NCBI RefSeq assembly: GCF_019649055.1
Contig: NW_026570234.1
Location: 186,001-250,000, forward strand
Reading direction: 5' to 3'
Source: Paramacrobiotus metropolitanus
Taxonomy: Eukaryota > Tardigrada > Eutardigrada > Parachela > Macrobiotidae
Length of the DNA stretch: 64,000 nucleotides
Both the position numbers and the translations under genes were made by a program. Below, piece by piece: positions 934 through 42,165 of this stretch (within the stretch, counting starts at the first letter, position 1; each line of letters starts with the position of its first letter). The notes beneath the pieces are model-generated. The model saw only the letters and a list, made by a program, of their open reading frames with translations, was not told where the DNA came from and did not search any database.

Positions 934-3900
934 TTATTTTTGATGGATAGGTTGGAAAGGAACAGCTGCTCCTTTGCGGACAAAATTTCGTCGAGCAACT
1001 TTGGACTTATTGTCGTAGATAAAAGTAGCGGTAAATCCATCTGACCGGAAGACGCCCGTGATTTCGTAATAATTATGAGCGTTGTCAGTCTGGTTGATCT
1101 TGCCATGCAGAATCGGGGTGTTGTCCATCTCGTAATAAAACCATGTTTGCTGCAAGTAAAACCATTTTACGCGGTAGACAAAATTCCCATCATAAAAAAA
1201 TTGTGCTTCCGGTACGACGCACGGACCTCGAGCTTTTTTCCATGGACAGTTAGTTCCTCGGGCTTGCCGAATGTTATTTGACTTTCGTGTACCGGATCTC
1301 CTTCGTGCGTAATTTTTTGAACGAAAGTGCCGTCTTTTGCTTGAGAGAATTCCATGGGCACTTTTCTGGCCATTTCCGGAGCGCCTGCAATACACTTGCT
1401 TAATATCAAAGATCGAAGCAAACCGGAGAAACAAAATTCATGAATAACTGTGACTGTACCTATATGGTTAGCAAACGCCTTGAATTCTTCGTTGAGGTCA
1501 TCGCTCTCGAAAGTCCCAGTTGCGGTTTTAGAGACAAGCCGGCGCATAAACTTCTTGGCAACCACATTGCCTCGTATATATTTCTGCAAAGTATCAAAAG
1601 ACCGATCCAGTGACACAAAAGGCCGGTTGCGACTTAAAGTTCCCCACCACATAGATTCCATCAGGAGCAGCGATTTCCTCAACGATATATTTCTTGTCGG
1701 TGCCGGCAAGTTTCACGCTGGTTTCGAGAATAACGTCATTTTTTCGCCGTTTATGGGCGGTAACGCTAAACTGCAAAAATAATTACCAGCAACAGATGTC
1801 TATTCACTTTTAAATAGTTGATTTCAAACCAATGCAAAAAGCAGTGTTTGCGGAGTTTTAATTACGGTTTTTACCTTATATGTGTTGTTTCCAATCTGAA
1901 ATTCCTCGGGGCTATCTAGTTTAAATTCAAAATCCATTTTCGTTCCGTTCTTGTAGGTTTTGCGAGCGCCATAATGATCACCCGTGCGGTACATGTCCAG
2001 AGTGTGCGGATGATTGTCAAAGGGCAACCTCGAAGAAAGCACTCAAGTACAGGAAACCAACCATAACCCATAAATGTTGGCCTGGACAGATGAAATCCGT
2101 GTGCTTACTGCCGTCTTCGAGGAATTTTTCGTAGTTTTCGGTCATCGCAGGAACCTCTTCGAATTTCCCGTAGAAGAACCAAGGCATAACCCGGCTGTAT
2201 CGACTTTTCACTTCGCCTTTATCAGTCACTATAGTCTAACATGGAAACGAGAGTACATGTCTACATGGATCATATACCGACTGCCATGGGATTAATTGTA
2301 TTTACTCATTAAGCTAGCAACTAGGTACGCTACAAGGAATTATAACTAGTTTAAAGAGACACGGCATACGCAAGTAAATCCCGCGCGGTCGTGGACACAC
2401 GTGTTAACAAAGGTGCCCTTTGCTGACTTGGTTGTAATTCTCACGGTAGTGCTGTTGGGTGTGCTGTTCATAATTTCGTGTTTAGACTCGACTGTTTGAT
2501 TGCCGTGAGTTACAGTTTGTTTCCGGTTTAGATGGAACTCTGTTTTGTAGTACAAAGTGGACATGGGATCCACGATGGCCGTCTCGCAGAATTTGTCGTC
2601 GAAGCGTTCCAGGTGAAATTTGCTGTCCTTAGACCAACTGAATCCTTTGGGAGGAGCTAAAAAACAAGTCAAAGTAATATCGCAGTGCAATGCCATCACA
2701 CTATTTTGCCGGGAAATTTAATCAAGCAATACTCCGAGAGGCAGATGCTTTTGCACTGGTTAATCAATCCTTCTAATAATTCATCTAAAATCATTCAAAC
2801 TCCTGTGCACACACAAAAATGCAGAAAACCAAACATTTCAGGCGGCCCTTGGTCCAAGCGTTGAAAAATACATAGCATAATAAATCTACTGTATATCTAC
2901 TAGCCTCTACTGCAGTAGTTCTATGTTGTGGATCTAGTACTGGATTTTTTGGTGTTGCAATTTAAGAAATTGGGCCACTTACAAAAAAGATTGTTGTAAA
3001 AGTCGATAATATTGGGAGAGCTTTGACTGAGATCCGGCTCGAAAGCGCCGAAAACATATCCAGGCAAAATGCGACGGTAGCTACGTCTGGCTACGGATTC
3101 TCCTCGGGTGTATGTCTAAACACATTCCATTTAACCAGATTTTTCCCACCATATAACCGTTACAGATTTATAATTACCGAAGTGATTCATTGCTGCAGCA
3201 AGCAGTGCTGACTTAAGTGCAAAGAGCAAATAAATTTCGACTCTTTATTATTATTATTTTTGCAGTTAAGTACTCTGTTCAGGTAATTCGGGCACTCGTG
3301 TAATTAAACGGTGCTCGTCTTACAGCATTGTAACCGTTGCTGTCGAAAATGGCCACCACATCAAATTTTCGACTGCCGTTAATTTCGCGGAATGCTGCTC
3401 GAATAGTTGCTCCATGGTTATCGCCCTCAGCAGTAAATTCGTACTGAAATCACATGTAGTTCGGTGTATCGAATGCCGAAACAAATTAAGAGCAAAGAAT
3501 GGGTCGGGTATCAAACCTCAACAACTCTGCCGTTGATTGTTTTATTTTGCTTTCCGTCAAGTTTGAAGGGAATATATGCAGAGTAGAGATGGTCGGCAGA
3601 TATAAAGTACTGACGAAAACTGTCGCCTTGTTTATGAAATCCAGCTAAACTACGATCTCTTTCGTTAACCGCTACCGCTAGATCTGTTGACATACAGAAA
3701 TAATACAACGTTTAATTAGAAAGTAATAGTTTATAATACATTCATCATGTCAGTCTTACTCTAATCGTCATGCTGTCACTTACGGAATATGTGGGTTAAT
3801 TCGTCAAAATGGCTGTCCTCACTTTCTGGTATGGCCTCATACAAACCCAAGACAATTTCCGGCAGGTTGGTCAAAGGAACAGACCTGGTGCAGCTTACAC

Positions 3901-3973
3901 CTGTATATAAAAACTGACATAAAACCAAAGAACAACAAAACCAAAAGAAATGTTTAACAATGCACAAATTCAT
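934..3973 (-). CDS. secreted four-domain FABP/SAHS-like protein, copy A
   Basis: Eleven exons join in frame: 3973-3784, 3683-3517, 3443-3324, 3115-2983, 2656-2370, 2235-2109, 2041-1875, 1770-1648, 1583-1460, 1384-1227, 1149-934, giving 603 residues. A hydrophobic leader (residues 1-28, MNLCIVKHFFWFCCSLVLC...) predicts secretion. Four repeats of about 140 residues follow (about 29-175, 176-316, 317-455, 456-603). Each starts with an FABP-like helix motif (LGLYEAIPE, VFGAFEPD, FYGKFEEVP, ATGTFESDD followed by F..F) and ends with a strand like VVAKKFMRR. Alternating strands in between (MDFEFKL, TVHGKKLEV) suggest a ten-strand lipid-binding barrel. The fold resembles tardigrade SAHS proteins, but these are usually single-domain. 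Several NST sites are possible N-glycosylation sites. An alternative exon 1 upstream, joined to an acceptor at about 3902, cannot be excluded because copy B has an intron there. Ligand and role are unknown. Confidence 0.85.
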
Positions 3974-5418
3974 ATCGTCAAATGATCACGACATTTTATC
4001 AATAAATCTGCTTGGAATGGCGCTTAGGATCGGTAAGTACTCGTACGACAGGTAACACAACTATCTTTGCCAAATGTTTTACTGTAGATGTTCGTGGATG
4101 TACCAAGAAAAAGAAGAAACATGATAGGTCTCATTTTTTTCCTGGTGTTGGAGACCAAATTACGTAAAAAATTACCGGCAGTGCGAAACCAGCTTTACTG
4201 CTGTGCTACCATTTCTCCATAAATTAAGACTGTCGGTGGGCTTGATAAACATGGTATGCTTCACGCTATCAGTCGGTCAATCTCATTGTCAGCTGGCATT
4301 TGGCAGGTATTACTGTAACATTTATAACCTTGTATTCGGCTATTAACGCAGTCTACGGGTGCAACAACAACAACGCGTAACGATGAAATTTTATTTGGGC
4401 ATTGGGTGAAGACACTAGCACCGGAACACGGGTCACCGGCGCAACCGGCCCCGCCGTCCTTGCTAAAACAACCCCCCTCACCAAAGAGGGTGGGCGGGAG
4501 GGAAGAACGACTTGTTACATGCAAACCATCTTTGTTCCAATACGACAGCAACTCAAATGCACTAACAGAAATGCACAATCACTACAAATGCAACGTCCAC
4601 AACCGAAACTGCATTGCTTATACAGCATCGGAATCTGCATCCCAAGGCACACCCTAATGGGTTTTCTTGGCTGGACACTGGTCAACCAAGTCGTCCAGCC
4701 TTGCGAACACCTACGCTGCGTTAACCGGAATTAGCTTCGCTAATTCTATTTTATTTCGGTTCGAATTTCAGCCTTTGTAATTTGGGAAGTGTTGACAATA
4801 TATATAATTATAAGACAAACATCAATATTAACGTGTTCTTATTATTTATAGGTGTAAATGCACATAAAGAACGAAATTAAAATTAACTAATTTTGATCAA
4901 AATAATTACGTGGATCTTGTTTTTTTTTTATGTTTTACTGGATTTTTTATCGCGACATGTATTCGTTATTACCAGCAGCTTGTATAACTGTTTGTAGCTA
5001 ACAAGTACTACTAACTTAAATAAAATTTAAGGTTAAAATATACGAGCAAATACTTCTGGTAAGTCATTTCTATATGGACTTGTGAATTACTGTGGGGTAT
5101 GCATGATCATGAGGCTCAACAGAAAACAATTTATTACATAAAACTGATATCAGGAGTAACTTAATATTTCATAAGCATTTTTTATACTAAAATAAGCGTT
5201 AGAATAAGTTTTGACTGCCGGGTGAATTCGTTCATTTATCTTTCACCTTTAATTTGGAATCAGAATTTTGGTCTTTGCGGTGATAACGTAAACCACGCAA
5301 CATAGATGTGCAGCAGCCAAAAATACAACAGCCCAGAATTAAGCATTTCTTAGGTGCGCTGAAAATACATGTCCAAAGCAGATCGACAACATTTCAAATA
5401 CCGAAAACTGACACTGGT
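3974..5418. other. intergenic between the two paralogs
   Basis: About 1.4 kb between copy A and the 3' end of copy B. A GC-richer patch at 4390-4510 gives overlapping frames on both strands with no recognisable protein. The remainder (4740-5300) is AT-rich with runs of A and T. It should hold the copy A promoter, but I see no clear TATA box. Confidence 0.4.
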
Positions 5419-8400
5419 TTAGTGAGCAGGCTCGAAGGGAACAGCTGCTCCCTTGCGGGTGTAGGTGCGGTGAGCAATCTTGGTGTTGTGATCGTACACG
5501 AAGGTAGCGGTGTAGCCATCGGGACGGAAGATACCAACAACGTCAAAGTAGTTGTTGGCATTATCGGTCTGGTTGATGGATCCACGGAGGACTGGGGTGT
5601 TGTCAACTTCGTAGTAAAACCACTTTTGCTGCAATTACAATTGTGGATATCAGTTACCCGTTCGAATGACTTGAGTCGCAGATGTCCTTTCGTGTAACAT
5701 ACCTCGAGGTGCTTTCCGTGGACGGTGATCTCATCGGGCTTGCCGAAGGTGATGCGGCTTTCCTGAGTGGCGTCTCCTTCAGGGGTCAGCTTCTGGACGA
5801 ACACACCGTTCTCGGCATCGGAGAATTCAATGGTGATCTTCTTGAACAGTTCAGGAGCACCTGATGAAGCAGCAGAAAGTAAGTTTACTGATGTACTGAT
5901 AATGGTCTTGCTCACAGCCTGTGTTCTCAAATTTCTTACCAATATGAGTGGTGAAAGCCTTGAACTCGTCGTTGTTATCAGTGGATTCGAAGGTTCCGAA
6001 CACAGTCTTGGGAAGGACACGGCGCAAGAATTTCTTCGCAACAACACCTTCGCGTTTGTAGGTCTGGAAAAAGTGGTTTAATGCCGGTTAACCAACAAGC
6101 AATGCATAAAGCATAATAATCTGATGCTGTTAATTAATCAACTTCATATATTGAAATACGGCTTTTTAATGAATTAAGTCCAAAATTCCAAGCAAAAAAC
6201 AATGCGCTACTTACCACATACAGACAAACAATGCGCTACTTACCACATACAGTCCTTCAGGGGCAACTTGTTCCTCAACGATGAACCATTTGTCAGTACC
6301 CTTGACCTTGATCTTGCTGTGCATGATCACTTTGTCTCCACGGGACTGGATAGTGACGTTGTACTAAATTAAAAACAAGATCTTGTGATTGCAGCACGTT
6401 AACTCCCAGATCAAGTGATAACTTTGTTAGAAATTGTAAATTCACACATACACAAAAAAATTTGTTACATTATCAGATAAGTGTACCGTACTTTGAAAGT
6501 TTTGCCATTAGCCTGGAATTCCTGAGGAGTGTTCAGCTTGAATTCGAATTCCATAGCCTTCTCTTCACCAAAGGATTTGCGGGCACCATAGTGGTCACCT
6601 TTCTTGAAGATCTCCAAAGTGGCAGGCTGGTTCTTGTGGGCGAATGGGCAATCTAAAACCATGTGGACGAAGTTAAGCAACTTCTTGTTGGAGATAACTG
6701 TACATAGTATTGTTTAAAATGCATAAAATACATTAACCAAATCAATTTTTAATTTTATTAGAAGTTAAAACTAAAAGCAGGCTTAGCCCAGTAGTACTAG
6801 TAATTGATGCGAACGATTAAATTTACAAATCAACCGTAAAGCATATATAAATATTTCAGAGCTTGCGCGAAAAGCTGTTGTTTATGCGTATTACAGCGTA
6901 TATAACTTTGATCATGACGAAATAGTAATAGCAAATTTCTCGCACCTTCTCCCTTGGTGAATTCTTCGTAGTTCTCAGTCTTTTCAGGGACTTCCTTGAA
7001 TTTACCATAGAACAACCAGGGCAGAACACGGTTGTAGCGGGTCTTCACTTCGCCCTTGTCGGACTTAGCGGTCTACAAAACCACACCAGTGAACGGTCAC
7101 CCGAGTGTAAACTACGTCATAAGTAATACCGTACACCCAAAGGAAACCAGGATTTTCTCCAGACATTAACGACATTTTACATACCGAGGTCACTCCTTCA
7201 TGGTCGAAGACGCAGGTGAAAACGAGGGTTCCCTTCTCGGGGCACTTGTAGGTAATGCGCAGAGTGGTGGTCTCCTTTGTGGTCTCCACAACTTCGTAAT
7301 GGTAGTTCACGGTGTGGTTGCCGTGCTGGATGCTGCCGGGCTTGTTCAGCTCGAATTCCACCTTCTCGTAGTAGGTGGCGTCGACGATAAACTTCTCGTA
7401 GAACTTGTTACCGTGACGGCCAACGAAGAACTTGGTGTCCTTGGTCCAGGTCAATCCCTTGGGCAGAGCTGCAATATGTACAACATAATTAATTTCGAAT
7501 TTCGCGGTAAATTTATTGCAGCGGCTGTACGAAAGTACTTACGGAAAAAGTTGTTGTAGAATTCGGCGGTGTTGGGCGAGCTCTTGGTAATGTCCAGTTC
7601 ATAGGCACCGAAAACGTAGAAAGGCAGAGTGCGACGATAGCTAATCTTGGCGACAAGGGCGTCCTTGGTGTAGGTCTGCGGATGTAAAGAAGCTGGTCTT
7701 AACACATGTGACAAGCATAGACGTCCATAGTACAGACATATCGACCAGTTAATCAAAGCAATTTCACATTATAACACCATATTTTGCTGAATATGCAGTA
7801 GTTTTCTTCGTGTCAGGTTATTCTTGATTAACATACCGCGTTGTAACCGAATTTGTCGAAGCGGGTCTCAACGGTGAATTTGACATCACCATCGACTTCG
7901 CGGAGCTTGGCGTGGATAGTGGCGGTGTTATCGTCTCCTTCGGCGGTGATTTCGTACTGCAAAATCAAAAGCAATGAAGATCAATCGGCTTAGAATTCAG
8001 TGACCTATGTCCTATACGCACTTCGATGGTCTTGCCGTTCATGGTGGTGGTCATCTTTTCGCCCAGCTTGAATGGCATGTCAACGTAATAATTCTGACCG
8101 GGGTACCAGAAGTGCTTGTGGTAGGTCTCACCATCCTTGCGGTATGCCACGAAGTTGGGTTCAGCCAACTTGATGTGCTCGGGCATATCTGTAAAAGGTC
8201 GTTCATAAGAAAAGTATTTACTTACGTAGAGTAGTGGACAGAAAAGAACCAGTTTAAGCTGGTAACTGCAGCCTAGCAGCATTCCACCAAATCTTAAGGC
8301 CGTTATTTTTATTCGGCATCAACCCGCTGCATTAGTCTTACCCCTGCGCAGACTTACACCATTTAAAATAATTAAATTTTGAAATTTGAAAAACATCCAA

Positions 8401-8763
8401 AAAATTCCACCAAACGAAATACGTACAGGCCAACACAAACTTTTCGCGAAAAACAATAAAACAATTGGTCACTCACGGAAGGCGGTTTTAGCGAATTCGG
8501 CGAAGTTGCTGCTCACGGTTTCCGGGATTGGCTCGTACAGGCCCAGGACGACCTTTGGCAGGGTGTTGGAAGGGACTGGAGTGGCACAAGCCACGCCTGC
8601 AATGCACAAAAAATCAACAGTACGTAAATTAAATCGGGCTGGCCGCGAGTCAGTCACTACAGTGTTATGTTTATCCATAAAAAACATTTTTTTCAGCTGG
8701 AGTAAATTAACAAAATTGAGGATACGCACCCAGAAGGGCAAGAGCAACGAAGACACGGGTCAT
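5419..8763 (-). CDS. secreted four-domain FABP/SAHS-like protein, copy B
   Basis: Twelve exons join in frame: 8763-8730, 8596-8477, 8188-8022, 7956-7837, 7675-7543, 7468-7185, 7072-6946, 6652-6492, 6363-6244, 6063-5940, 5860-5703, 5628-5419, giving 585 residues. The signal peptide is MTRVFVALALLGVACA. Four domains of about 140 residues follow (about 17-163, 164-303, 304-439, 440-585), each opening with an FABP-like helix (VFGAYELD, FYGKFKEVP, VFGTFEST) and closing with a strand such as TYKREGVVAKKFLRR. Exon lengths and phases match copy A almost exactly (167, 120, 133, 127, 124 and 158 are identical), so the two are tandem duplicates. The sequence is more regular than copy A, with a good TATA box upstream, suggesting stronger expression. 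A lipid-binding or desiccation-related extracellular role is inferred from fold only. Confidence 0.88.
6200..6252. repeat. 29-base tandem duplication of a splice donor
   Basis: A 24-base block at 6200-6223 recurs at 6229-6252. It spans the end of copy B exon 9 and its GTAAGT donor on the minus strand, so two identical donors lie 29 bases apart. Use of the distal donor (6214/6213) would add 29 bases and shift the frame. Confidence 0.85.
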
Positions 8764-13927: not shown

Positions 13928-16900
13928 TCATCCATTTACAGAAGAAACTTTCATTCGCGGAGCAATATTCATACTGATTAACTCCTGAAAAAGCAGTTTA
14001 CACGCGTAAGGCATCCGCACGGCAGATATTTTTCCTGACTGCCGACATGACGTGCAGGTTTCCTTCCATACAAATAATCCACATGTATCGCAAATCAGCA
14101 CTTCGCACTCGTCACTGGCCAGCATGAGCCGTTCGTTGAGCAGAGCGGATACACCGTGAGCAATCATACAGTCTCTCTCCATTTCTCCCATACGTAAACC
14201 ACCATCCCGTGCTCTTCCTTCCGTCGGTTGTCTAGTCAAAGACTGCCGAGGTCCTTTGGAACGTGCATGAATCTTGTCGATTACCATGTGTTTCAATCGC
14301 TGATAGAAAAATGGTCCAATAAAAATGTACGCCTCCAGCATTTTGCCTAAAACAATTTGAAAAAATGTCAAAAACGAAACGTACAGTATCTCTTGGCAGA
14401 TAACGACATCGCACAAGAAGCTGCTTCGGCTAACACTCCTGTAATGGATTTACTGTTTCGATAAAGAAAATACTTCCTTAACTTATGTGACTGTCAGTAT
14501 TTGGAATGTCTGCATACGTTTCAGGCTTCAACAACTGCAAGACAGTTTCTGAAAAAACAATCACATACCGGTTACTCCGTCTGTAAGAATTTCTTTGCCC
14601 GACCGATCAAAGCCAGCTTTTTCCATAATCTGGCACATTTCCTCCAGCCTATCTTCCCCAAAGGCTGACCCATCAAAGATTTTGCCGACAATAGCGCCTG
14701 CCTTACTCCCCATCAACTCCCTTAGCAATCCAACAGTCATGCGACTGGGAATACCGTGAGGATTCATAATGGCATCCGGTCGAATACCGCTCATGGTGAA
14801 AGGCATATCTTCCTCCGGTACAATTAATCCACACACTCCTTTCTGTCCATGGCGACTACTAAATTTATCCCCAATCTCCGGAATCCTCGTTTGCGATGTC
14901 CGCACTTTAATCAGCTGTTCACGTTCACTCTGAGAGATCATGATTTTATCGATATGACATTTATTGGGCTCTTGAAAACGAACGGGTTCCGGTTTATCTC
15001 TGGCTATGCTCCGATTCGGTCCACCCAACGGATTCACCGATAAATCAGTGGGCTGGGCTGCGCCCACCGGTACGTATTTATTAATCATAACGTCGCCACG
15101 TTCCACAGTTTCCCCAATAACAATCAAACCATCTTTATCCAGCTTCTTGTCGGACGGGAAAATTTCGCCGGTTGACTGATTGACTCGCGGAGGGAATAGG
15201 CTTTCTTTCTCCGTGTCCAGTGCTCGCAAAAGCGTTTGATGTTTACGGTAAACTGTACAGCGCTGATATCCTCGTTCCAAAGAAGCTTTGTTTAGTATTA
15301 TCGCGTCCTCAATGTCGTATGCAGAATACGAAACCATGGCCACAATAGCGTTTTGTCCAGCAGGTAACTGGTCAAAAGAGGTAATTCCTGCAACGATTAA
15401 TGTTAAACTAACATTATTTCAGAACTTCGAGCTACCTAAAAAAAAATTAACAGAAATGGAAAAAAGATTAACCTCGCTAAAAGCAAGTGAGCATCAAATT
15501 TCTTACCATAGCTTTTTGACTGGACCAGAGGACGCTGAGGATTCCATGAGCACTGCAGAACAGTGTCAATACGACTCGTCTGATTCAAAGCGATGGCTCC
15601 AATAGCCTGCTTGCCCATAGCACACTGGTAAGTGTTTCGAGGGCTTTGATTATGATGGGGAAAAGGTATAGTTCCCGCCACAACGCCCAAAATGGAAAAG
15701 GGAGCAATTTCCATGTGCGTCGTCTGTTCACTGATCTCAGATTCATCAAGAGCAATAAGACTGTCATTTAGTTCGTTAACATCCAGATATTCAACTGCTC
15801 CTTCTTTAACCAGATCGTCAAAGTTCAAGTATCCATCCCGTACGGCATCAACATATTTCTGCTGCATTAACAATCGTCCTCCTTCCACAATAAAGTATGG
15901 TCTGCACATTCGGCCGCCGTCGGTGGCAAATGTTACGGTACGATGCAGATCACTGTAAAATTGTGTAATTCACTGATACATCGATGTAGTTTCAAACTGG
16001 TCACGTAACAACAATTTTACGATGCATACCTTACGGCAGCTGATATAAACTTATCAATTTTGCCCAATCGTCGAGCTTGCTTGACAGATTTGTGCACATG
16101 GAAGTGGATTTTTAGTAAACCCGAAAATGCTTCCGTTAACGAATATCGTATACACATCTCCCTTCGGATACGTCCAAGGTGATGCGGCAAGTTCTTGAGG
16201 TGTCCTGGTAGCAACACACGATAAGAGTTTTCGTATCTGATCCTCCGGCGACTCCACGGTCAAATCACACAGCAAAGCCAGATTTTTGGTCAAACCACAG
16301 CCTTCACCTTCCGGCGTATCGGATGGGCACACGATTCCATACTGGCTAGCTTGAATGGATCGCGGTCCGCTAACCTTCCGACTTTTTTCGAACTGACTCT
16401 GCAGACGAGACATCATTCCCACCGCAGATACGTAAGATAACCGCACCAATACTTGCGCAACGCCGACACGGTTAATCTTGAAACGGCGAATGTTCAAATT
16501 GCCGGTATCGAGGAAATAATTAAATCCTTTGCTCACCAGGTCGGCTCGTATACTTGTTGTCGGATCATATGGGCTAACTCGGGCGCGCGTTTTCAGATGG
16601 TGATCTGCGCGCTTCTTAATTTCAGTATTGAGCGTTTTTATCACATCTTCAAACACAAATGCCAGAATATTCCCAGCCAGTTGCAGACGTTTGACGCCAA
16701 AATGATCTCGGTCGTCCAGCAAACGGGGATCCTTCTCCGCTAGAATACACCGCCGTACCATGTAACTCAGAAACGCGGCTTTATCGTCAAAGCATCCATT
16801 GATAACGGGAACATGACTGATAAGCGTTCCGACCAAGATCTGCATAACTTCCGCTGTCTTCGGCCGCTTCAATCCCCAACTAACGATGCCCGTTTTCAGT

Positions 16901-18067
16901 TTAGCGGCTAAGTATTGCAGCGCTTCTTCTTTCTTACTAATATCCAAACAAAGAAATTCATCAACAGACAGGGTGAATTTTTCCAAAACGAAGTGTTCTC
17001 GCCCGATCCATCCCAACGCCATGTCCAGATAGTGTATTCCCATTGCGGCAAAAATCATCAGTACTGGAATGTCCTCTCGGAACATGTTGAAGCGCACATA
17101 ATAGCATCCTTTTTTCTTGACCACGGTCGTCCGCGTTTTGTGATCTTGTGAAAAACTGATGACGAAACACGTCAGCTAAAAAAAATATCAAAACCTTTCA
17201 TTTAGTAAATAAAAGATTAAACGCGTCTGTACGAGTCATCCAACTGAACGACCAATATGAGCACTGACCGAAATGTTCGCTACTTCTGAAAAACAATTAG
17301 CAATAAAAAAATTAAGTGTTTTCGAAAAAAATAAAAACCTGGAATTATTGTAGTAATGGCTTAGCAGGTAAGCATAAAAGTTAATGCTACGTCGCTACCT
17401 CTTTTTTTGGATTAAATTCACAGACGATTCGGTCGTTCATCATCTGCTCTTGCATCAGCACAGCTTTTTCGCTTCCTTTGGCAATAAAATATCCGCCGGG
17501 ATCCAGCGGGCACTCTTTCAGTTTCATCAACTCTTCCTCACTTTTCCCGTACAGAACACACAGCTGACTCCGTAGCATTACGGGAATTTTACCAATTAAA
17601 ACATTTTCCTTTCGCTCTTCTTTACCCTGCAAAATGTAGCGAATATCCACGAGAATCGGCGCGGAGTAAGTGAGATTCCGCAGACGGCACTCATTAGGGG
17701 AAGTAGCTTTTACAGGGCCCAGACCATCTTCAACCTGCAACCGATAAAATTAAATTAAAATATTCCAGATTCTGTGATAGTTTTATTCGAAACTTTTATT
17801 GAGAGAGGAGTCTCCAATTACCTGTGGCTGTCCAACGCGTATTCCGTCATACTCCAAATACCAACTCGAGTCTGCATCACTGGTTACGCGTCGATTAGCA
17901 CGCAGAATCTCCGGCATACGCACGTTAATAAAATTGTTGTAGGAATCCAGATGCAGCTTCTCCAGACCATGACTTTTTAGGAAATCCTTAACGATTACCG
18001 ATGTGTTAATCAGCTTCGGACTGCGGCTGTCCGAGCTCGTAGTACCCGTAGTGGAATCTGCAGACAT
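13928..18067 (-). CDS. POLR3B: DNA-directed RNA polymerase III subunit RPC2, with a 1-base frame break
   Basis: Six exons: 18067-17822, 17734-17399, 17175-16030, 15952-15507, 15387-14569, 14346-13928. They encode about 1136 residues, close to the human length. RPC2 hallmarks run in order: [29 protein letters not shown]-type [84 protein letters not shown] and a C-terminal zinc finger (CDTCG...CTSC). RPC2 forms the active cleft of the enzyme that makes tRNA and 5S RNA. In exon 3 the frame must slip by one base at a CCC run (16120-16122, + strand): the family alignment passes from NGSIFG to the other frame (LLKIHF...ARRLGK). Exon phases confirm one extra base. Confidence 0.93.
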
Positions 18068-30432: not shown

Positions 30433-33400
30433 ATGTCAAAAGATCACAGTGCTCAACTGAGCGCAGCCATTCCCATTGATTCAGGTGTTGATCCTTTGAC
30501 AAGCAACCCGGAATCCGCGGATGCAGTCCAAACTACCCGACCAGCTGAGCTTCTGCTACCAATTCCGAACGATGTCGACAGCATTGCGCTGCAGTCACCG
30601 AGTCCCATGCCCACGGAGAACGCCAGCAAAATCCTGGTCCAGCCTACAGCCATTCCGGGATGCCTCAATGCACACAACGACGGGGCTTTTGACTGGTTCG
30701 TTACGCTGAATGTGTTTGATGCATAAATGCGAAGGCGAAGAATTTTGCAGGGGTTGGCAGGGATGTCTCGCATACGGAATGCAGACTCTGGTGGTGGTGC
30801 TCGATGCTCGCACCATGTCGAAGGTTCAGGTGTTGGATCTGCATAAACATCACGTCGCTGTGGTGAGTGATTGCAAGCAAACAGTGTGTTTGTGGTTGCT
30901 TTTTGTGAGCTTGCTGATTTTATGTGCTCGTGTAGGTTCGTTGGGCGCGAGAGAATTATTGTCATGGTCCACGTCAGAGTTACAGTTTACGGTTGGCATC
31001 AGCTGATATTCAAGGCTGCATCATCGTCTGGGATGTTTTAAAAGGAGCAGCGCAGTCGAAATTCGGGGAAAGTGAAGGTCCTGTTTTTGGTAGGGTGCCT
31101 TACTGGATATTGAACGCTAATTTAATTTTTAAATTGGAATTTTCATAAAACTCGGACATTTGAATTTTATTTTTGTGCGTTAATTACTGAAAAATATTTA
31201 ATCTGAAGGTTTTAGAGCAAGCGTACTTCGTAATGCTCAGCCCCATTATACTTTTGTATTTCTTTCTGGGGTGTCGGTGGTCGCATAATCAGAACTTCAG
31301 TATGTGGTACCTGCTTTGTGCACATCTGAAAGACATTTTTATTGCCGCAGTTGCTGTCTTTTGACGACTACAGTTATACCGTATCCTATAATGTTTTTGA
31401 ACTGCAGATATGGCATGGCATTGGCATCAGGATGCCACACAGGATTTGCTATTGTGTCTGCACGCTAATTCCTGCTTGGTACTGTGGAATGCCACAACCG
31501 GCACGATGATCTGGAAAAAAATCTTTGCCCGAGTGGATCATCATCTGGAAGCGTTTGACCTGGATCCCCATCAGCCCAATCGTGCAGTTTGTAGGTTCAT
31601 CGTGCTCGTTTGTATTTTTTAATGCCTAATTGTCTGATTTCAAATTGGTACATGTTAGTTATCCATCGTTTTGCTTTCTCTAGTTATCGCTTCTGATGGC
31701 ATTTGGATGATTCAGGATATGTCGTTTTACAAATCCCCTTCACATGATCTGGAGAGGATAAGTTGGTATCTGAATGGCAGACTTACGGGTGTCCATCGCG
31801 AAGGCTTGGCGGGCAAAGATGTGGCAGTATCCCCGACATCCATTCGTTCGGACATTAAGCAGCGTGCATCCAAGCTGCTTTCACGCAATTCACTGGTTGT
31901 TTCCAACATTCCGGAAGTTGACAGCAACAGTTTATTGGAGATATATTTTCATCGAAATATGTATAATGTTCTTATTGCGGTGTATCCGCGGCAGATCTTG
32001 TTCATCAGCATTCGCTATGGTAGCGTGTTTCGGCAGATTAACTCTGAGAAAGCTGCTGTTCCATTCCAGTCTGTGATTCCAGTACGGCAATTGGATGCAT
32101 TCTATTGTCTCCATACAAATGGGTCCATCAGCTTCCGTAGCGTTAGCAAGCCAAGCACTAACGCTCTTATCGTCCCTTGTGATGCTGTAAATCAGCCGGA
32201 GGCCACGCGCCTTCTGAAACATTGCAAGATCTTTGGTTTTGCTGTGGATCCTGTTAGCGAAATGCATTTATCCGTTTTACTCAACGACGGCCGTATTTTA
32301 GCTTGGAAGCTAGATTCTGGCGACAACGAATTACGTATATTACCGTCCAGTTTTATTTCTCCACCAAGAATATTTTTGACATGCATGACCACTCCGTTGC
32401 ATTCTCCACCATTAGTCATCCAGGCCAATCTACTAGTCAGTGAACGGGATCATCTGATTGCAGTAGGGTCGAGCAAGGGGACAGTACAAATCTTTCAACA
32501 TGGAAGTAGTATATTGTTACGAGAATATTTTATCCAGAATAACCCGATTCAGGGATTGGAATGGATTACACCGAGTTTATTATTAATTTATTCGTATCCA
32601 CACACCGGAAGTCCGGCAGCGTTAGTGCGCAGCGAAATTGTTCTTCTAGACTTGCGAATTGGCAGTGTCCGGCTTTTACGGAAGAGTGTGGCTGAAGAGT
32701 CGCCAATTCGGACAGTCAAAGTTTCCCCCGCGAAAGACCATCTTGTAATTGTTTTCAAGAATGGTGTTCCAGAAATCTGGAATATTTTGGAAGGTCGTCA
32801 GTTGGTATGGCACCGACCGCGCTCGGTGCCTCATGCTACAGCTGCCGAATGGGTTGTTGTGTTAACTCCGGCTGTGGACGACCCCGCGACATCTGATGCT
32901 AAAGTCCGAAAGGAACTGATACTGTTTGTCGATCTCAAAGGGCTTTTTCAGGCATTCAGAGTGAAAGGCAATATCATACATGAAGACAAATCATCGGTAT
33001 TCACTACACAGGCCACCATAGGACACGTTACAGCTATGTGCCGTAAACGGAATAAAATAGTCATGGGGGATGTGGATGGTAGCCTGATAAAATGGACACC
33101 ATCGGAAAGCTTAGCGGAGACTAAAAACTTGAATAGAGGTTGGATCAAAAACATTAAATTTGCTCCTAAAGATCGAACAATGTGGGCTGCTGTACTTTTT
33201 TCCGATGGGCTGGACGTGTGGGAAATAGAAACGGTAAGAGAGCAAACGTAAACAAAGTTGCACTTGCGAAAGTTTTTCATTGTTACTTACGTTCTGAACA
33301 ATTATTAATTTTGTAGATGGAACTGATTAATCAAGTTAGACCAAAACTTTACAAAATTAACTCCTTTGATTGGGTGTCGGCGACGCACCTGGCTTTATGC

Positions 33401-36221: not shown

Positions 36222-39200
36222 TCAAAATAGTCGGCTCTTCTTCGCAGATTTCCGTCGAACCGGGATCAAACGAAGGACATGGTACCACAGCAAGGAGCCA
36301 AAGCCAAAAAACAAACATATCATCCACGAATCCAATGTTAAAGGCTGCGTAGAAAACACGTAACCGCCAAATTGCACTACCAAAACTTGTGTGACGACCA
36401 TGACGGTCCACAGTATCAGAAAATACAGATTGCGCTGAATTCCTTGGAAGACGTTCACTTCGTTATGGATACAGCGAGCATTAATTAAGTTGAACGATGT
36501 CATCATCACCAAACAATTGAAGATCATCGTATAGAGGAACGTCGGCTCCCCAACAACATGACCAATTTGGCGCTCTTCATGAACGTCAAAATAGTATGGT
36601 CCTAGAATGATAGCCATGTTAATCAACCGACCAACGAAATGAGTGCAGGCAATACCATTAACTTTTGCTTAAAAGGTCAATCTTACCTAAAAATAACATC
36701 AAGAGCAGTACCACAGTTTGGTACAGTCCTTGTCCGAGAATATTTCGAGCAATTACTCTGCTAATAATCCGTTTCTTTCTGCCATACGGTTTCCGCTTTA
36801 ATAAGGCTTCGCCTGGAGGCTCTGTTGCAAGTGCTAATGAACCCAGGGTGTCCTGGATCATATTAATCCACAGCATCGGAACTGCCTTGAGGGGAGTATC
36901 CTGCAAAAACATTTTAAAATATCAAATTGAGTGTTATTCTTACCAGCTATATTATCCAGATGTTAATTATTTAACTTTTCATGATAAATTTGTTCTTAAG
37001 CCCACTCTTAAAATACACAAATGTTACAACTTACAACAGTTCTTACCCCAATAGCACAAGCCGAAACAATGGCAACACTTAGCGCCGCGACATTGACTGT
37101 CAGCTGAAACTGTAGAAATTTTGCCACGTTGTCGTAGATATTTCTTCCCCACATGCAAGCCTTAACGATGCTAATGAAATTATCATCCGTAAGAATGATA
37201 TCGGACGCTTCTTTTGCGACATCTGTTCCGGCGATACCCTAAAAATGACTGGCATGGAATTTACGCGCAAACAATTTCTAGCATTTCACATCTGTAAATT
37301 TCGGATGGACAGATAATACAATTAATTTTACAGAATAACTTGCACCTATTTTATCACGTTAATGTCTCCTTTGACGTTTATAAGGAACTACTCATTGTTA
37401 GCGAATTTGGTTTATTACCGTAGCGAATTTTGTAACGCCACTGAACTTAGTTCAAACTTAACAGTAATTTCACTTTTTTCGTACCATGGCAAATCCAACA
37501 TCGGCTTTGCGGAGAGCCGGCGCTGTTAAAAATAATACATTTACAATATTTTATAACTATTACGTAACAATAACATATAATAAAATGCCTAAATAAACCA
37601 ACCATCATTTGTCCCGTCGCCTGTTACTGCAACAACCTATAAATATAATGACTGGTTATGTTACAAATTGTTCTTGTCGGCATCCTAAATTTCCCACTAA
37701 CCTCCCGATGTTTGGATATCCTGCTATTGATAATCCCGTCAACCAAGGTAAATTTATCTTCCGGTGTCGATCGTGCCAAAACTCTTAGCTTCGGCCATAC
37801 ACTGTTCAGTCGGCCGGGATCAATCTATTGCGCAATGAGATCAGCACATCAACGATAAATCCATTACGCAACAATCAACTCCACTCCTACCTGTCCATTG
37901 GAATCTCGAATCATGACGTTGAACTGACGACCGTCCAGTACAATGCTGTCATCCTGGGGTGCGATTATCCCGCACTTGATGGCAATCGATCGGGCCGTCT
38001 GGATATTATCACCGGTAATCATTCTCACCGTCACACCGGCGCGCTGGCACTGCCGGATGGCATTAGGCACTTCCGGCCGCACCGGGTCTTCAATGCCGAC
38101 AATGCATAGGCATGTCAGATTGGATATAATGCTGTTTTCGTCATCGAAATCCGGCTGACAGGAAACTTTCTCAACATTAGGAAGGCTATCCACATCGTCA
38201 GTATTCAACAAATAGTCTTTGTAAGCGATACAAATGGTTCGAAGTGCACTGTTTGTCATCAGAGAAATCACGCTGTTGGTGACCATCTGTGACGCATCCG
38301 AACACTCCAACAACGATCCCGATTCGGTTAACATGAAACGGCACCTACAAATAAAATATCTAATTAGAAAACAGCAATATGTGCAAGCGAAAATGCACAG
38401 CCAAGCATATCGACATCTAGTATTTTCCAAGAACCGTCAGATTTATAAATATGGTTTGGACAATGCGTACAAAATAATAATGTACATCGAGATAAAGCAG
38501 ATAATAAAATTCAACTGCGCATTAAATCCCAAAGAAAGTGGCACTAATTTTTACAGTGTCAAAGAAAAACCATGAACTTAAGGAAATCTGCTTACTTGGA
38601 GACGATAATCTCAGCGGCACCCTTAGTGAACACCCTCCAGCCTCCAGGGATTTCAACCACTGTTGACATTGATTTCCGCCCCGAATTGAAGGTATATACT
38701 TTCAAGAGCGATCCTTCAGGATACATTCGTCTCACTTTATGGTAATCCGTTCCCAATGAGGAAACGAAGCTCAATAGGGCACATTCAGTTTTATTTCCTC
38801 TGTGTTCCTGAGGGACTCCATCTTTAGCAGGTATAACATCGGAAGTGTAGTTGCAGTTTACGGCAACAGCAGTACCGACAATTTTCAGTACATTCTGACT
38901 CGCTGCTTTCACATCAGGCAGAGGATCATAAATTTCTCCTATCAGTTACAATCAAAAAAGTCAGCAATAATCACTATTTGTAGAAACGTAGAACTTTTAC
39001 CCGAGCTATGTAAAATAAGAGGTGCGAAATGTATACTGTATAGGCGTTAAAATTTCATATTTCGTGGCTTGAGTATTCAACACAAAATTTCAACAAGTAT
39101 TTCATATTTTTCCGTTTTCGCAGTACAACCTGCAAACCAGTGTGCCAAACTGAACTACCTCGGAAATTCTGAACGACTTGTTGGTTCGACAAAAATGGCA

Positions 39201-42165
39201 TTCACAAAAGGTTAATCCAAATTTCATGTACGATTTTCGGTCAGGCTTACCTCCAAACCACGCCTGCATTACTGTCATGCGGTTTGTAGTGAGGGTTCCC
39301 GTCTTATCTAAAATACGCAGTCAGTCAGAAATATATTCCTCTTTGCACGCACATCTTTTACTGATTAATATTTAATAGAAATTAAATTAAGACCTATGAA
39401 ACAAAGCAATCAGCAAAGGTATTAAACACTACAAACTGTGACCTACAGTATCTATACATATTTTCCAGCATGCAGTTCCTACTTTTCTGTTTCCCTAGTT
39501 AAAGCGAAAAATTGCTAATCTACCTGAACAAATTGTCGTCGCGCATCCCATTGTCTCACAGGCATAAAGGTGCCGGACGAGGTTGTTATCCTGCATCATT
39601 TTCTGAAACATCGAAAACATTTTAATCGTTGTACTCCCTAATTATCTGTATTGCATGCATTAATTTATGTTATGCCAAGTACTTACTATAGTGTGAGGTA
39701 AGTTCTTGGTTATGCATTAATTTATGTTACGGTAACAGCAGTAACTCGTGCAAATATGTACAGACTGCATTGTTATTGGTGTCCTTACAATTTGTTGTGA
39801 TAACAGTTAAGGTTTGTACGATCATAATTATTCAGCCAAACCGATTCAAACAGCGGCAATTTGATTTACTGCAGTTGATCAAACATAAGTAGTAGTAACA
39901 GTACATACTAACAAAATGTAAGCTACTAACTTTTGCCGAAAATGCCAAGGTCAGTGTTACTGCCAGTGGCAAGCCTTCGGGAATTGCTGACACCAGGATC
40001 GTAATTCCAACAATAATACTGTCTAATATTGTAGTGGCATCTTGACTTTTCCAGGAATTTCCATCTATAGCATAGTTCTGTACACAGAACCGAATGATTA
40101 TCACCAAGGATGTGGCGGCAGAAAAAATAAAACCTGCACAAATCAAGAATAAGTCATATGCACAAGATGCCAACCATTTTTCACAAAAAGCAAAATATAC
40201 CAACAAAATTAAACTGACCAAGAATTCCAATCTTGTAAGCTAAAATATTCAGTTTGGACTGGAAGACCGAATGATTGGTTTGCTTTCTTTGTTGGTCCAC
40301 AGATTTCCGGGCAGAAGGACCGTGCAATGGCAAATCAATGCTATCCTCGGTGGAAGCAGATCCATCTTCATCTTCCGCCGGAACAGTTATCCCATTTGGA
40401 ACCTTATCTTTGGTCTTTCCATCTTTTACCGCCCCTAACAGCTTGTATATGGCACCAGTTTGTGAGTTAACTCCCACTGCCAGAACGAGAAATCGTCCTG
40501 ATCCCTCAATCACATGTGTTCCTAAACCAAATAACAAGACATTCTGCAATTCAATACCGGATTTCGGAATTACAATGGCAATTACGCACAATTTCTGGCA
40601 TATTACGGGTATTTCGGCACCACATGCAGTAAATACTTAACAGCAAAGCAAAACATACCCGATAAGATCTGACAGTCATTATCAGGATTTTTGCGCACTG
40701 GATCGGATTCGCCTACAAATTATGAAATAATGGTCATAAAATAATGAATGTGTAAAAACGTTTATTCTCTAAATTATTCTAAACCAACGCAAATAAATAA
40801 GAGCCATCTTTTACAGTTGCGAATCCAGTCGCATACTCAGTAAGCCCAGTACAACCACAAGATGCCACGATAAGCGGTTCAATCATCAGCCATCGTTCGA
40901 TATAGATCAATTTACCTGTTAAGGAACTTTCATCGAGTCTTAGCTCCTGACTTTGCAGCACGACACCATCAGCTGGGATGAGATCACCTGCGCACACAAT
41001 TTCGACGTCATAAAATTCAAAAAAATTAGAATTCAACAACAGTATCGTAATTCAATACCAACCGTATTTGACTTGGCAAATATCCCCAACAAGTAATTCC
41101 TGCACTGGTAGCAGTACAGTTTGGCCCTGACGAATCACAGATATCTTGTGTTCTTCCTGGACTCTAGCTTGTAAAGCCCGAAACTGCTGTTCTTTGCCAT
41201 AGTCATTCGAAGCGCTGACTAGCACAATTATCAAAACACCAATTGCAATCGCTAATCCTTCAATCCACTCGTACGACTCGGTGCCGTTATCAGCTGCAAA
41301 CAAACATTCATCATTGAAGAAAGGACGAAAATGCACACCGCCTTTGCTCATGTCAGAATAGAAGTAGAATCGCAACCCAAATAATACAAAAAATGCGCTC
41401 AATAAGGAAAGGACACTAGGTAGAAAAAGCCTTCAAAAGTAATAAATTTGTAGTAAAACTGTTCTGGGCAAATAGAACCCACCTCCAGGACGGAAAACAT
41501 TCCACACCGCCAAAGCCAACGACACAACTGCAGCCACTTCCAGAATAATCAGTGTTGGTTCTCGCAAAGCTTTCAGCATCAACTGCATGAACGATTTCGG
41601 TTTCTTCATAGGAATAACATTTTTACCAAATGTCTCCTGACGCTTTTGCAGCTCTTGCGCCGATTCATCTAATCCTGTCACAATTCAAGTACGCATTTAG
41701 TATTTTAAATTATGATAATGTACCGATGGTACAAAGTTAATTCATGAAATCCACAATTCCTAACAAAGCAAAGAATTTTTATTTATTAAAAATAGTCTGG
41801 AGATACGAACGTCGCATAAACACTACGTTAGCCGATTACGATATCATTATTATAGTGGATTAACATATCTCGATAAGTTTTCGCAGTTCATCCACTACGA
41901 TCAATTTACCCCGACTAGGCGATGCAAGCAGTTGCATGGATAATCCGGCGAGATCTCCATACAATTCGTCGATCCGCTCCCTCACACCGATTCCCCGCAA
42001 CTGCATCAATCGACACAGATCCTCCGCAGACACTCCATACTCCAGTGCACTGCGCAAAGCAATAGCATCTGCATCCCCATCATCATTTTGGCTGTCCTTG
42101 CGAGATGGTCTCCGAAGGCCAGACGAGCGTCGCGCCTTATCACGGTACGGCTCAAATGGGCACAT
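36222..42165 (-). CDS. PMCA: plasma-membrane-type calcium-transporting ATPase with short C-terminus
   Basis: Seventeen exons: 42165-41910, 41674-41483, 41293-41063, 40987-40916, 40712-40659, 40521-40219, 40133-39931, 39602-39524, 39307-39251, 38938-38596, 38344-37891, 37824-37702, 37636-37603, 37522-37485, 37238-37047, 36900-36687, 36601-36222. They give 1074 residues. P-type ATPase landmarks are [15 protein letters not shown] (actuator), [14 protein letters not shown] (TM4), [11 protein letters not shown] with the phosphorylated Asp near residue 464, TGDGTNDG, and PMCA-specific TM5-TM10 blocks ([31 protein letters not shown]). It exports calcium from the cell. The protein stops after TM10 ([11 protein letters not shown]), so the long calmodulin-binding autoinhibitory tail of animal PMCAs is absent from this model. 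Confidence 0.92.

What the first reader, a model, noticed from the sequence alone, without database searches (positions are those of the whole stretch)
934..8763. Tandem pair of secreted proteins made of four FABP/SAHS-like domains each
Each gene encodes a signal peptide plus four consecutive barrel-type repeats of about 140 residues (603 and 585 residues in total). Known tardigrade SAHS proteins and animal FABPs are normally single-domain. A four-module secreted beads-on-a-string version would be a distinct class of extracellular lipid-binding or desiccation-protective protein.
Basis: partly seen in the sequence, partly recalled or inferred. Interest (0 to 1): 0.82.

Follow-up and report, generated by a model that had tools for sequence, protein, structure and literature searches.

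The report
Secreted four-barrel SAHS-like tardigrade proteins
Two neighbouring genes, apparently of a tardigrade, each encode a probably secreted protein built as a chain of four small modules related to lipid-binding barrels, whereas the known relatives (fatty-acid-binding proteins and the tardigrade drying-protection protein SAHS) consist of a single barrel; what the chains do is not yet known.

Summary
On the minus strand, gene A (8763-5419, 12 exons, 585 aa) and gene B (4134-934, 12 exons, 589 aa in my model, not 603) each encode a signal-peptide-like start and four ~140-residue modules. All six module junctions lie inside exons, so on these models the modules are not separate genes. The modules are homologous to each other and, as a set, to tardigrade SAHS1 (E 9.7e-13) and more weakly to FABPs; evidence is strong for modules 1 and 3, fair for 4, mostly indirect for 2. 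A third, diverged four-module gene (C) lies 8 kb beyond B, outside the window. In a small tree, single-domain SAHS group together (99/98) apart from all 12 modules: relatives of SAHS, not SAHS proper. Three SAHS1 pocket residues are absent in all 12; the fatty-acid-site Arg plus Tyr/Phe remains in 7 of 12. Best reading: a secreted multi-cavity carrier or buffer of lipid-like molecules. Function, expression and induction by drying are untested; no structure could be predicted. Literature searches found no multi-domain FABP or SAHS.

The parts
5419..8763 (-). Gene A: 12 exons (8763-8730, 8596-8477, 8188-8022, 7956-7837, 7675-7543, 7468-7185, 7072-6946, 6652-6492, 6363-6244, 6063-5940, 5860-5703, 5628-5419), 585 aa, four modules
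   Evidence: all introns GT-AG, one stop
934..4134 (-). Gene B: 12 exons (4134-4104, 3900-3784, 3683-3517, 3443-3324, 3115-2983, 2656-2370, 2235-2109, 2041-1875, 1770-1648, 1583-1460, 1384-1227, 1149-934), 589 aa, four modules; exon 1 donor and the 2109/2041 intron are the least certain
   Evidence: all introns GT-AG, one stop
8730..8763 (-). Gene A exon 1, first part of the predicted signal peptide
   Evidence: hydropathy only
4104..4134 (-). Gene B exon 1, first part of the predicted signal peptide
   Evidence: hydropathy only; weak donor site
7628..8561 (-). Module A1 (aa 24-163)
   Evidence: SAHS-only profile E 1e-9
7025..7627 (-). Module A2 (aa 164-302); no intron b; two Cys
   Evidence: SAHS-only profile E 0.00076
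6016..7024 (-). Module A3 (aa 303-438)
   Evidence: SAHS-only profile E 4.2e-10
5422..6015 (-). Module A4 (aa 439-585); no intron c; Arg-x-Tyr kept
   Evidence: SAHS-only profile E 0.00035
3068..3865 (-). Module B1 (aa 23-161); Arg-x-Tyr kept
   Evidence: SAHS-only profile E 8.4e-7
2188..3067 (-). Module B2 (aa 162-301); no intron b; weakest match to SAHS
   Evidence: SAHS-only profile E 6.5, not above shuffles
1536..2187 (-). Module B3 (aa 302-440)
   Evidence: SAHS-only profile E 1.8e-6
937..1535 (-). Module B4 (aa 441-589); no intron c
   Evidence: SAHS-only profile E 3.1e-5
7543..7675 (-). Junction exon of A, end of module 1 and start of module 2
   Evidence: junction 48 nt into the exon
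6946..7072 (-). Junction exon of A, modules 2/3
   Evidence: junction 48 nt into the exon
5940..6063 (-). Junction exon of A, modules 3/4
   Evidence: junction 48 nt into the exon
2983..3115 (-). Junction exon of B, modules 1/2
   Evidence: junction 48 nt into the exon
2109..2235 (-). Junction exon of B, modules 2/3
   Evidence: junction 48 nt into the exon
1460..1583 (-). Junction exon of B, modules 3/4
   Evidence: junction 48 nt into the exon

Best explanation
Genes A and B (and C outside the window) encode probably secreted proteins (mature A and B about 65.6-65.8 kDa, with an assumed cleavage site) in which four FABP/SAHS-type modules follow each other with only a few residues between the last strand of one and the first strand of the next (inferred from the alignment). 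They arose from a single-domain SAHS-like gene with FABP-type introns: one fusion of a last exon to a first exon without its signal peptide, then in-frame duplication of a block of exons bounded by phase-0 introns, and later duplication of the whole four-module gene. Most likely function: an extracellular carrier or buffer that holds several lipid-like ligands at once in non-equivalent cavities. Shown by sequence: four homologous modules in one frame, homology to SAHS and FABP, shared intron positions, collinear order in three paralogues, purifying selection between A and B. Inferred: secretion (hydrophobic start only), the duplication route, the barrel fold of each module (by homology; weakest for module 2), ligand binding, and the multi-cavity role. 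Confidence about 0.93 for the identity and about 0.4 for the function.
For: Profile of the eight A/B modules hits SAHS1 5xn9 (E 9.7e-13 over 132 positions), SAHS4 (3e-6) and gastrotropin/FABP6 (4.9e-5 and 6.3e-5) among 177,635 PDB sequences; position 1 alone hits SAHS1 at 1e-7, position 3 alone at 1.2e-10. A profile of six single-domain SAHS genes of the same genome scores 10 of 12 modules above all 12,000 shuffles. Intron positions a/b/c with phases 1/0/0 in the modules, a and b also in a C3 SAHS gene and a, b and c in the C78 SAHS gene, as in the four-exon/three-intron plan of most FABP genes (PMC7193176, passages; exact positions not compared with vertebrate genes). Order 1234 is the best of 24 permutations for A-B, A-C and B-C. 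A-B: pN 0.276 against saturated pS 0.81 over 580 codons. At the positions of SAHS1 R161 and Y163, Arg with Tyr/Phe stands in 7 of 12 modules, and a basic residue at 161 in 9 of 12 (Lys in A3 and B3); these two residues lie at the putative fatty-acid site of SAHS1 (PMC5916119, part 1 of 3 read). TATAAAA upstream of A's ATG, and GC3 0.69 in A against 0.43-0.49 in three neighbouring stop-to-stop ORFs, hint at a highly expressed gene.
Against: No transcript, protein, ligand or structure data; no structure could be predicted. Position 2 alone gave 2,448 PDB matches of which the 60 shown hold no SAHS or FABP; nearly all are named as antibody light chains or Fab parts (best E 5.7e-7), and A2 has a sub-threshold match to the Pfam model bCoV_NS8 (E 0.0085; 16.9 bits against a cut-off of 27). 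B2 and C2 do not stand out with the SAHS-only profile (50 and 3 of 12,000 shuffles as high). Position 4 alone finds only FABPs at E 0.45-0.53 and one unrelated chain. The 8-module profile also hits cytochrome c2 at E 0.0054, level with FABP 8wkh (0.0059), and a carbonate dehydratase at 1.1. His72, Asp139 and Lys150 of SAHS1 are absent in 12 of 12 modules, and Arg161 is replaced in A1, A2, A3, B2 and B3. A1 also has a sub-threshold match to Pfam NEAT (E 0.006). The lead of the order 1234 is small for A-C (451 against 422) and B-C (384 against 345). B, with average codon use and weak splice sites, could be poorly expressed. Codon bias is only an indirect hint of expression.
Confidence: 0.6

Rival explanations
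1. Desiccation protectant: a concatenated SAHS-like protein that, like single SAHS, protects membranes and secreted material as water is lost, with no need for a ligand; chaining four modules raises local concentration.
For: Nearest solved relatives are SAHS1 and SAHS4. SAHS proteins are reported to protect biological structures in drying and to have variable cavities (PMC11127935, title and passages). Gene A has raised GC3 as does the C3 SAHS gene (0.69 and 0.59 against 0.43-0.49).
Against: The modules group apart from SAHS (99/98) and lack three SAHS1 pocket residues; no induction data; seven SAHS-like loci on C3 may already supply the usual SAHS.
Confidence: 0.25
2. Egg or body-cavity nutrient protein: a maternally made lipid store or lipid supplier, like the secreted nematode nemFABPs of perivitelline fluid, enlarged by concatenation.
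For: Secreted FABPs of nematodes sit in perivitelline fluid (PMC6646235, passages); large size and codon bias of A would fit an abundant product.
Against: No expression data by sex, stage or tissue; no sequence test made here separates this from the main reading.
Confidence: 0.2
3. The modules are separate single-domain genes in a cluster, wrongly joined by the reader and by me.
For: SAHS-like loci do occur as a tandem array elsewhere in this genome (C3:446-467 kb); no transcript was available.
Against: 6 of 6 junctions in A and B lie within an exon, 48 nt from its start, with an open frame and no signal peptide or stop there; the model of C has like junction exons; the order 1234 is the best fit in three paralogues.
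Confidence: 0.03
4. Module 2 is an immunoglobulin-like domain, so that the protein is a mixed-domain protein.
For: Position-2 profile hits antibody light chains; weak match of A2 to the Pfam model bCoV_NS8, a family that I recall as Ig-like; an antibody chain also appears, insignificantly, in the search with whole A (E 0.57).
Against: Position 2 aligns end to end with position 1 (E 4.1e-16) and position 3 (2.3e-8); profiles of the other positions recognise A2, B2 and C2; C2 has all three introns a, b and c. In the 60 rows shown the Ig match covers columns 13-88 at most, and such chains share one constant domain (recalled), so their number is not independent evidence.
Confidence: 0.04

Closest known systems
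SAHS (secretory abundant heat soluble) proteins of eutardigrades, e.g. RvSAHS1 (PDB 5xn9) and RvSAHS4 (5z4g)
   Same: Signal-peptide-like start; homologous over nearly the whole module (E 9.7e-13); introns a and b (and c in one SAHS gene) at the same places and phases.
   Different: Four modules instead of one; modules group apart from SAHS; SAHS1 pocket residues H72, D139 and K150 absent in 12 of 12 modules.
Intracellular FABP / iLBP family (e.g. FABP6 gastrotropin, liver FABP)
   Same: Detectable homology (FABP6 4.9e-5); three-intron plan; Arg with Tyr/Phe at the carboxylate site in 7 of 12 modules.
   Different: iLBPs are cytosolic (PMC6646235, passages) and single-domain (recalled); these genes encode a signal-peptide-like start and four modules.
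nemFABPs, secreted nematode FABPs (As-p18)
   Same: Secreted FABP-type barrels; PMC6646235 (passages) names nemFABPs and tardigrade SAHS as the only FABP-family proteins with secretion signals.
   Different: Single-domain (recalled); not compared by sequence here.
Dinoflagellate luciferase (tandem repeats of a lipocalin-superfamily barrel)
   Same: As recalled, several homologous barrel domains in one chain; PMC4532494 (passages) lists a dinoflagellate luciferase repeat within the lipocalin superfamily.
   Different: An enzyme of protists; not compared by any test made here. The tandem arrangement is recalled, not read.

Membership tests
FABP/iLBP superfamily (calycin-type barrel) | Significant sequence homology to members of known barrel structure | tested here: met
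   8-module profile: SAHS1 9.7e-13, SAHS4 3e-6, FABP6 4.9e-5. By position: 1 and 3 met, 4 only FABPs at 0.45-0.53, 2 none in the 60 rows shown of 2,448 but through its sister modules.
FABP/iLBP superfamily (calycin-type barrel) | Ten-stranded barrel with helix-turn-helix lid in the structure | not testable with these tools
FABP/iLBP superfamily (calycin-type barrel) | Three introns at conserved places (four-exon plan) | tested here: met
   Introns a/b/c, phases 1/0/0, near module residues 26-29, 79-85 and 121-125; b absent in module 2 and c absent in module 4 of A and B; C keeps both. Compared with SAHS genes of this genome, not position by position with vertebrate FABP genes.
FABP/iLBP superfamily (calycin-type barrel) | Arg-x-Tyr carboxylate-binding motif in the last strand | tested here: inconclusive
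   Arg with Tyr or Phe in 7 of 12 modules, Arg with Tyr in 5 of 12; Arg replaced in A1, A2, A3, B2, B3 (Lys in A3, B3). Some, not all, FABPs conserve it (PMC5916119, part 1 of 3 read).
SAHS proper | Groups with SAHS in a tree | tested here: not met
   5 SAHS rows are one side of a branch, 99/98, excluding 12 of 12 modules and the FABP (18-row tree, midpoint root for drawing only).
SAHS proper | SAHS1-type ligand-site residues (H72, Y117, D139, Y141, K150, R161, Y163) | tested here: not met
   H72, D139 and K150 in 0 of 12 modules; all seven kept in the C3a SAHS gene (control) but only two (Y117, K150) in the C78 SAHS gene, and RvSAHS4 differs too, so this is a weak criterion.
SAHS proper | Single SAHS domain with its own signal peptide | tested here: not met
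   One predicted signal start for four modules.
SAHS proper | Secreted, heat-soluble, abundant | not testable with these tools
   Only a hydrophobic N-terminus was seen; no protein data.

The most novel reading that the evidence does not exclude
A separate branch of the FABP superfamily, sister to SAHS, in which a secreted chain of four non-equivalent barrels acts as one multi-ligand particle; the four-module plan was already in place before at least three paralogues diverged, so the chain itself, not the single barrel, is the unit under selection.
Probability: 0.5. Interest if true: 0.7.

Novelty: new variant of a known kind. Interest (0 to 1): 0.57.

Why it matters
FABP-family proteins are known as single barrels (recalled), and secreted ones were reported only for nematodes and tardigrades (PMC6646235, passages). 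A kept chain of four different barrels under one signal peptide would be a new architecture for extracellular lipid handling, would give a tractable multi-cavity scaffold, and would make the open question of what SAHS cavities are for testable: each module can be expressed alone and in the chain and assayed for ligand and for drying protection. It also warns that counts of SAHS genes that assume single domains may miss or split such loci.

Tried and rejected
Pfam-A finds no family above its cut-off in whole A or in the four A modules, but neither in a true SAHS of this genome used as a control, so that silence means nothing; B and C were not scanned with Pfam, and B and C alone were not searched against the PDB. 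Separate mRNAs for the modules: rejected on exon structure. Ig-like module 2: considered, judged unlikely. Membership in SAHS proper: rejected by the tree, though 18 short rows, long branches (C2, FABP), a midpoint root and mostly one genome limit it; of 15 inner branches 5 carry starred support (the A/B pairs of positions 2, 3 and 4, the SAHS group and one split within SAHS); C4 joins A4/B4 at 92/88; A1, B1 and positions 1-3 of C are unplaced. A SAHS-like Milnesium sequence that branches below other SAHS in PMC10799326 (passages) could not be included. Prokaryote genome collection: no relative (two peptide patterns, 43 pattern matches, none confirmed), as expected for an animal family. Other eukaryote genomes could not be searched, so how widespread the gene is remains open.

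Literature: five searches for multi-domain or tandem FABP or SAHS found no such report. A search for SAHS and tardigrade found 47 papers, 40 listed, of which I saw passages of six and part of a seventh. Word checks: 'tandem' 0 and 'domain' 0 in PMC10799326 and PMC11127935; 'multi-domain', 'domains' and 'tandem' 0 in PMC13006486. The library holds open-licence papers only; figures and supplements were not seen. PMC13006486 counts 13 SAHS-like sequences in P. metropolitanus (passages) and I cannot tell whether A, B or C are among them.

Matches taken as chance: cytochrome c2 and carbonate dehydratase, two antibody chains with whole A, an Affimer and a phycobilisome linker, YajQ, 2q30, and the sub-threshold Pfam matches.
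Full report
The sequence. The window is G000:C14:186001-250000 of a genome of 169,799,020 bases in 533 contigs. It fits the tardigrade Paramacrobiotus metropolitanus (assembly 170,483,395 bases, 684 scaffolds; PMC8277472, passages), and the genome holds a set of SAHS-like loci, of which the one compared matches RvSAHS1 at E 1.6e-49; the species itself is an inference from size and content, not a sequence match. Both genes lie on the minus strand. Gene A runs from an ATG at 8763 to a stop ending at 5419 in 12 exons, all with GT-AG introns, and encodes 585 aa. Both proteins begin with a hydrophobic stretch of signal-peptide type (hydropathy only).

Four modules. Cut at the recurring motif that precedes the first conserved Gly, each protein gives four modules of 136-149 residues. 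Same-position identity between A and B is 44, 54, 53 and 65%; between positions 14-28%. Homology between positions was tested by leaving one position out: profiles trained on the other three recognised all 12 modules of A, B and C, E 1.5e-27 to 2.3e-07 in a database of 9,003, real scores 30.3-95.8 bits against a best shuffle of 11.9-20.5 bits per test. Profile-profile alignment agrees: position 2 against 1 E 4.1e-16, 4 against 1 5.1e-14, 2 against 3 2.3e-8, 4 against 3 2.7e-8; the pairs 1-3 and 2-4 were not run.

One gene, not four. All 6 module junctions of A and B fall within an exon, always 48 nt after its start; the model of C has like junction exons. No stop, start exon or signal peptide stands between modules in the models. 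No transcript was available.

Family. The profile of the eight A/B modules finds, among 177,635 PDB sequences, 7 at E up to 10: SAHS1 (9.7e-13), SAHS4 (3e-6), gastrotropin/FABP6 (4.9e-5 and 6.3e-5), cytochrome c2 (0.0054, taken as chance), another FABP (0.0059) and carbonate dehydratase (1.1). Whole gene A alone finds SAHS1 (8.5e-7), SAHS4 (5e-5) and two antibody chains (0.57, 0.82). By position (A, B and C together, E up to 1): position 1 gives 14 hits, SAHS1 1e-7, SAHS4 0.0035 and FABPs from 0.014 on; position 3 gives 21, SAHS1 1.2e-10, SAHS4 3.9e-8, FABP6 0.0024; position 4 gives 6, liver FABPs at 0.45-0.53 and one unrelated chain; position 2 gives 2,448, of which the 60 shown hold no FABP or SAHS and are nearly all named as antibody light chains or Fab parts, best 5.7e-7. 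A profile of six single-domain SAHS of the same genome puts 10 of 12 modules above all of 12,000 shuffles; B2 (50 shuffles as high) and C2 (3) do not stand out. Against that SAHS alignment hhalign gives 1.6e-13, 1.1e-6, 5e-13 and 4e-9 for positions 1 to 4. So modules 1 and 3 are FABP/SAHS-like directly, 4 less strongly, and 2 chiefly through its sisters and its intron pattern.

Introns. Modules carry introns a, b and c with phases 1, 0 and 0 near residues 26-29, 79-85 and 121-125. A and B lack b in module 2 and c in module 4; C has both, and has one extra intron in module 1. The single-domain SAHS gene on C78 has all three with the same phases, and a C3 SAHS gene has a and b. Most FABP genes have four exons and three introns (PMC7193176, passages). 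The exon block between two phase-0 introns can be duplicated without breaking the frame, a simple route to the chain (inference).

A family of three. Searching the genome with A (26 matches) and scanning fetched loci revealed gene C, minus strand, C14:175442-178713, 8 kb beyond B. Its first exon was not found and the start of its second is a choice; the model covers 581 aa. No module matched at E up to 1 in a further 8 kb fetched beyond C (L007), and in the window 21 ORFs lie above the inclusion line, all in A and B, with 3 elsewhere below it at E 1.3-7. The order 1234 is the best of 24 for all three gene pairs: 1,586 against 1,073 for A-B, but only 451 against 422 for A-C and 384 against 345 for B-C. 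The plan therefore very likely predates the split of C from A/B, with less certainty at positions 2 and 3.

Single-domain relatives. A C3 SAHS protein used as a query gave 29 matches, including seven SAHS-like loci on C3:446-467 kb, one on C78 and weaker ones on C13, C41, C16 and C59, besides two in gene A. Two genes I modelled (C78; C3), and four more were spliced by eye from ORF listings. In the loci fetched, each of these six shows one set of exons; the C3 loci between 450 and 457.5 kb were not fetched. An FABP without signal peptide (138 aa, one exon) lies at C14:1066177.

SAHS or sister? In an 18-row tree the five SAHS rows, RvSAHS1 among them, are one side of a branch (99/98) that excludes all 12 modules and the FABP; the FABP falls on the SAHS side of the next branch at 82/84, on a long branch, so the root is unsure. 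'Sister to SAHS' is thus the likeliest reading, not a proof. At the seven ligand-site positions of RvSAHS1 (PMC5916119, part 1 of 3 read), H72, D139 and K150 occur in 0 of 12 modules, and R161 with Tyr or Phe at 163 in 7 of 12: B1, A4, B4 and C1-C4; with Lys allowed, 161 is basic in 9 of 12. Within A and B the motif is lost in positions 2 and 3 of both and in A1. The cavities, if all are cavities, are therefore not equivalent.

Selection and expression hints. A and B differ at 81% of synonymous and 28% of nonsynonymous sites over 580 codons: synonymous change is saturated, and the protein is held by purifying selection. GC3 is 0.69 in A, 0.48 in B and C, 0.59 in the C3 SAHS gene and 0.43-0.49 in three neighbouring stop-to-stop ORFs. 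A has TATAAAA upstream of its ATG, seen in the sequence printed. I read this as A being strongly expressed and B perhaps not; expression was not measured. Possible N-glycosylation sites: 4 in A, 10 in B.

Mechanism. I favour a secreted multi-cavity carrier or buffer for lipid-like molecules (about 0.4), ahead of a SAHS-like drying protectant (0.25) and an egg or body-cavity nutrient protein (0.2); these overlap. Shown: the chain in the gene models, its homology and its conservation. Inferred: secretion, the fold of each module, ligand binding, role.

Novelty. PMC6646235 (passages) states that nemFABPs and SAHS are the exceptions with secretion signals in a family otherwise confined to the cytosol. 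My searches found no multi-domain FABP or SAHS in print; they cover open-licence papers only, and database annotations of this genome were not seen. I class it as a new variant of a known kind.

Noticed in passing
G000:C14:175442-178713 (L002, outside the window): Third four-module gene (C), diverged, minus strand; first exon not found; extra intron in module 1.
   Followed up: partly
4380-4740: Repeat of about 360 bp between A and B: 43 matches genome-wide, itself included, at 72-100% identity (88 candidates, 40 scored); probably a mobile-element remnant.
   Followed up: partly
G000:C3:446-467 kb (L005 and L012 cover parts): Tandem array of seven SAHS-like loci, all on the minus strand.
   Followed up: partly
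14561-17175: RNA polymerase second-largest subunit gene, minus strand (Pfam Rpb2 domains 2, 3 and 6).
   Followed up: no
31659-33251: WDR11-like WD40 protein, plus strand.
   Followed up: no
37864-38436: Borderline Pfam HAD hydrolase match (26.0 against a cut-off of 26.4); by eye a P-type ATPase piece, with more at 40181-40636 (not tested).
   Followed up: no
Module 2 of A, B and C (A2 at 7025-7627): Position-2 profile matches antibody light chains (best E 5.7e-7), probably chance; not explained further.
   Followed up: partly
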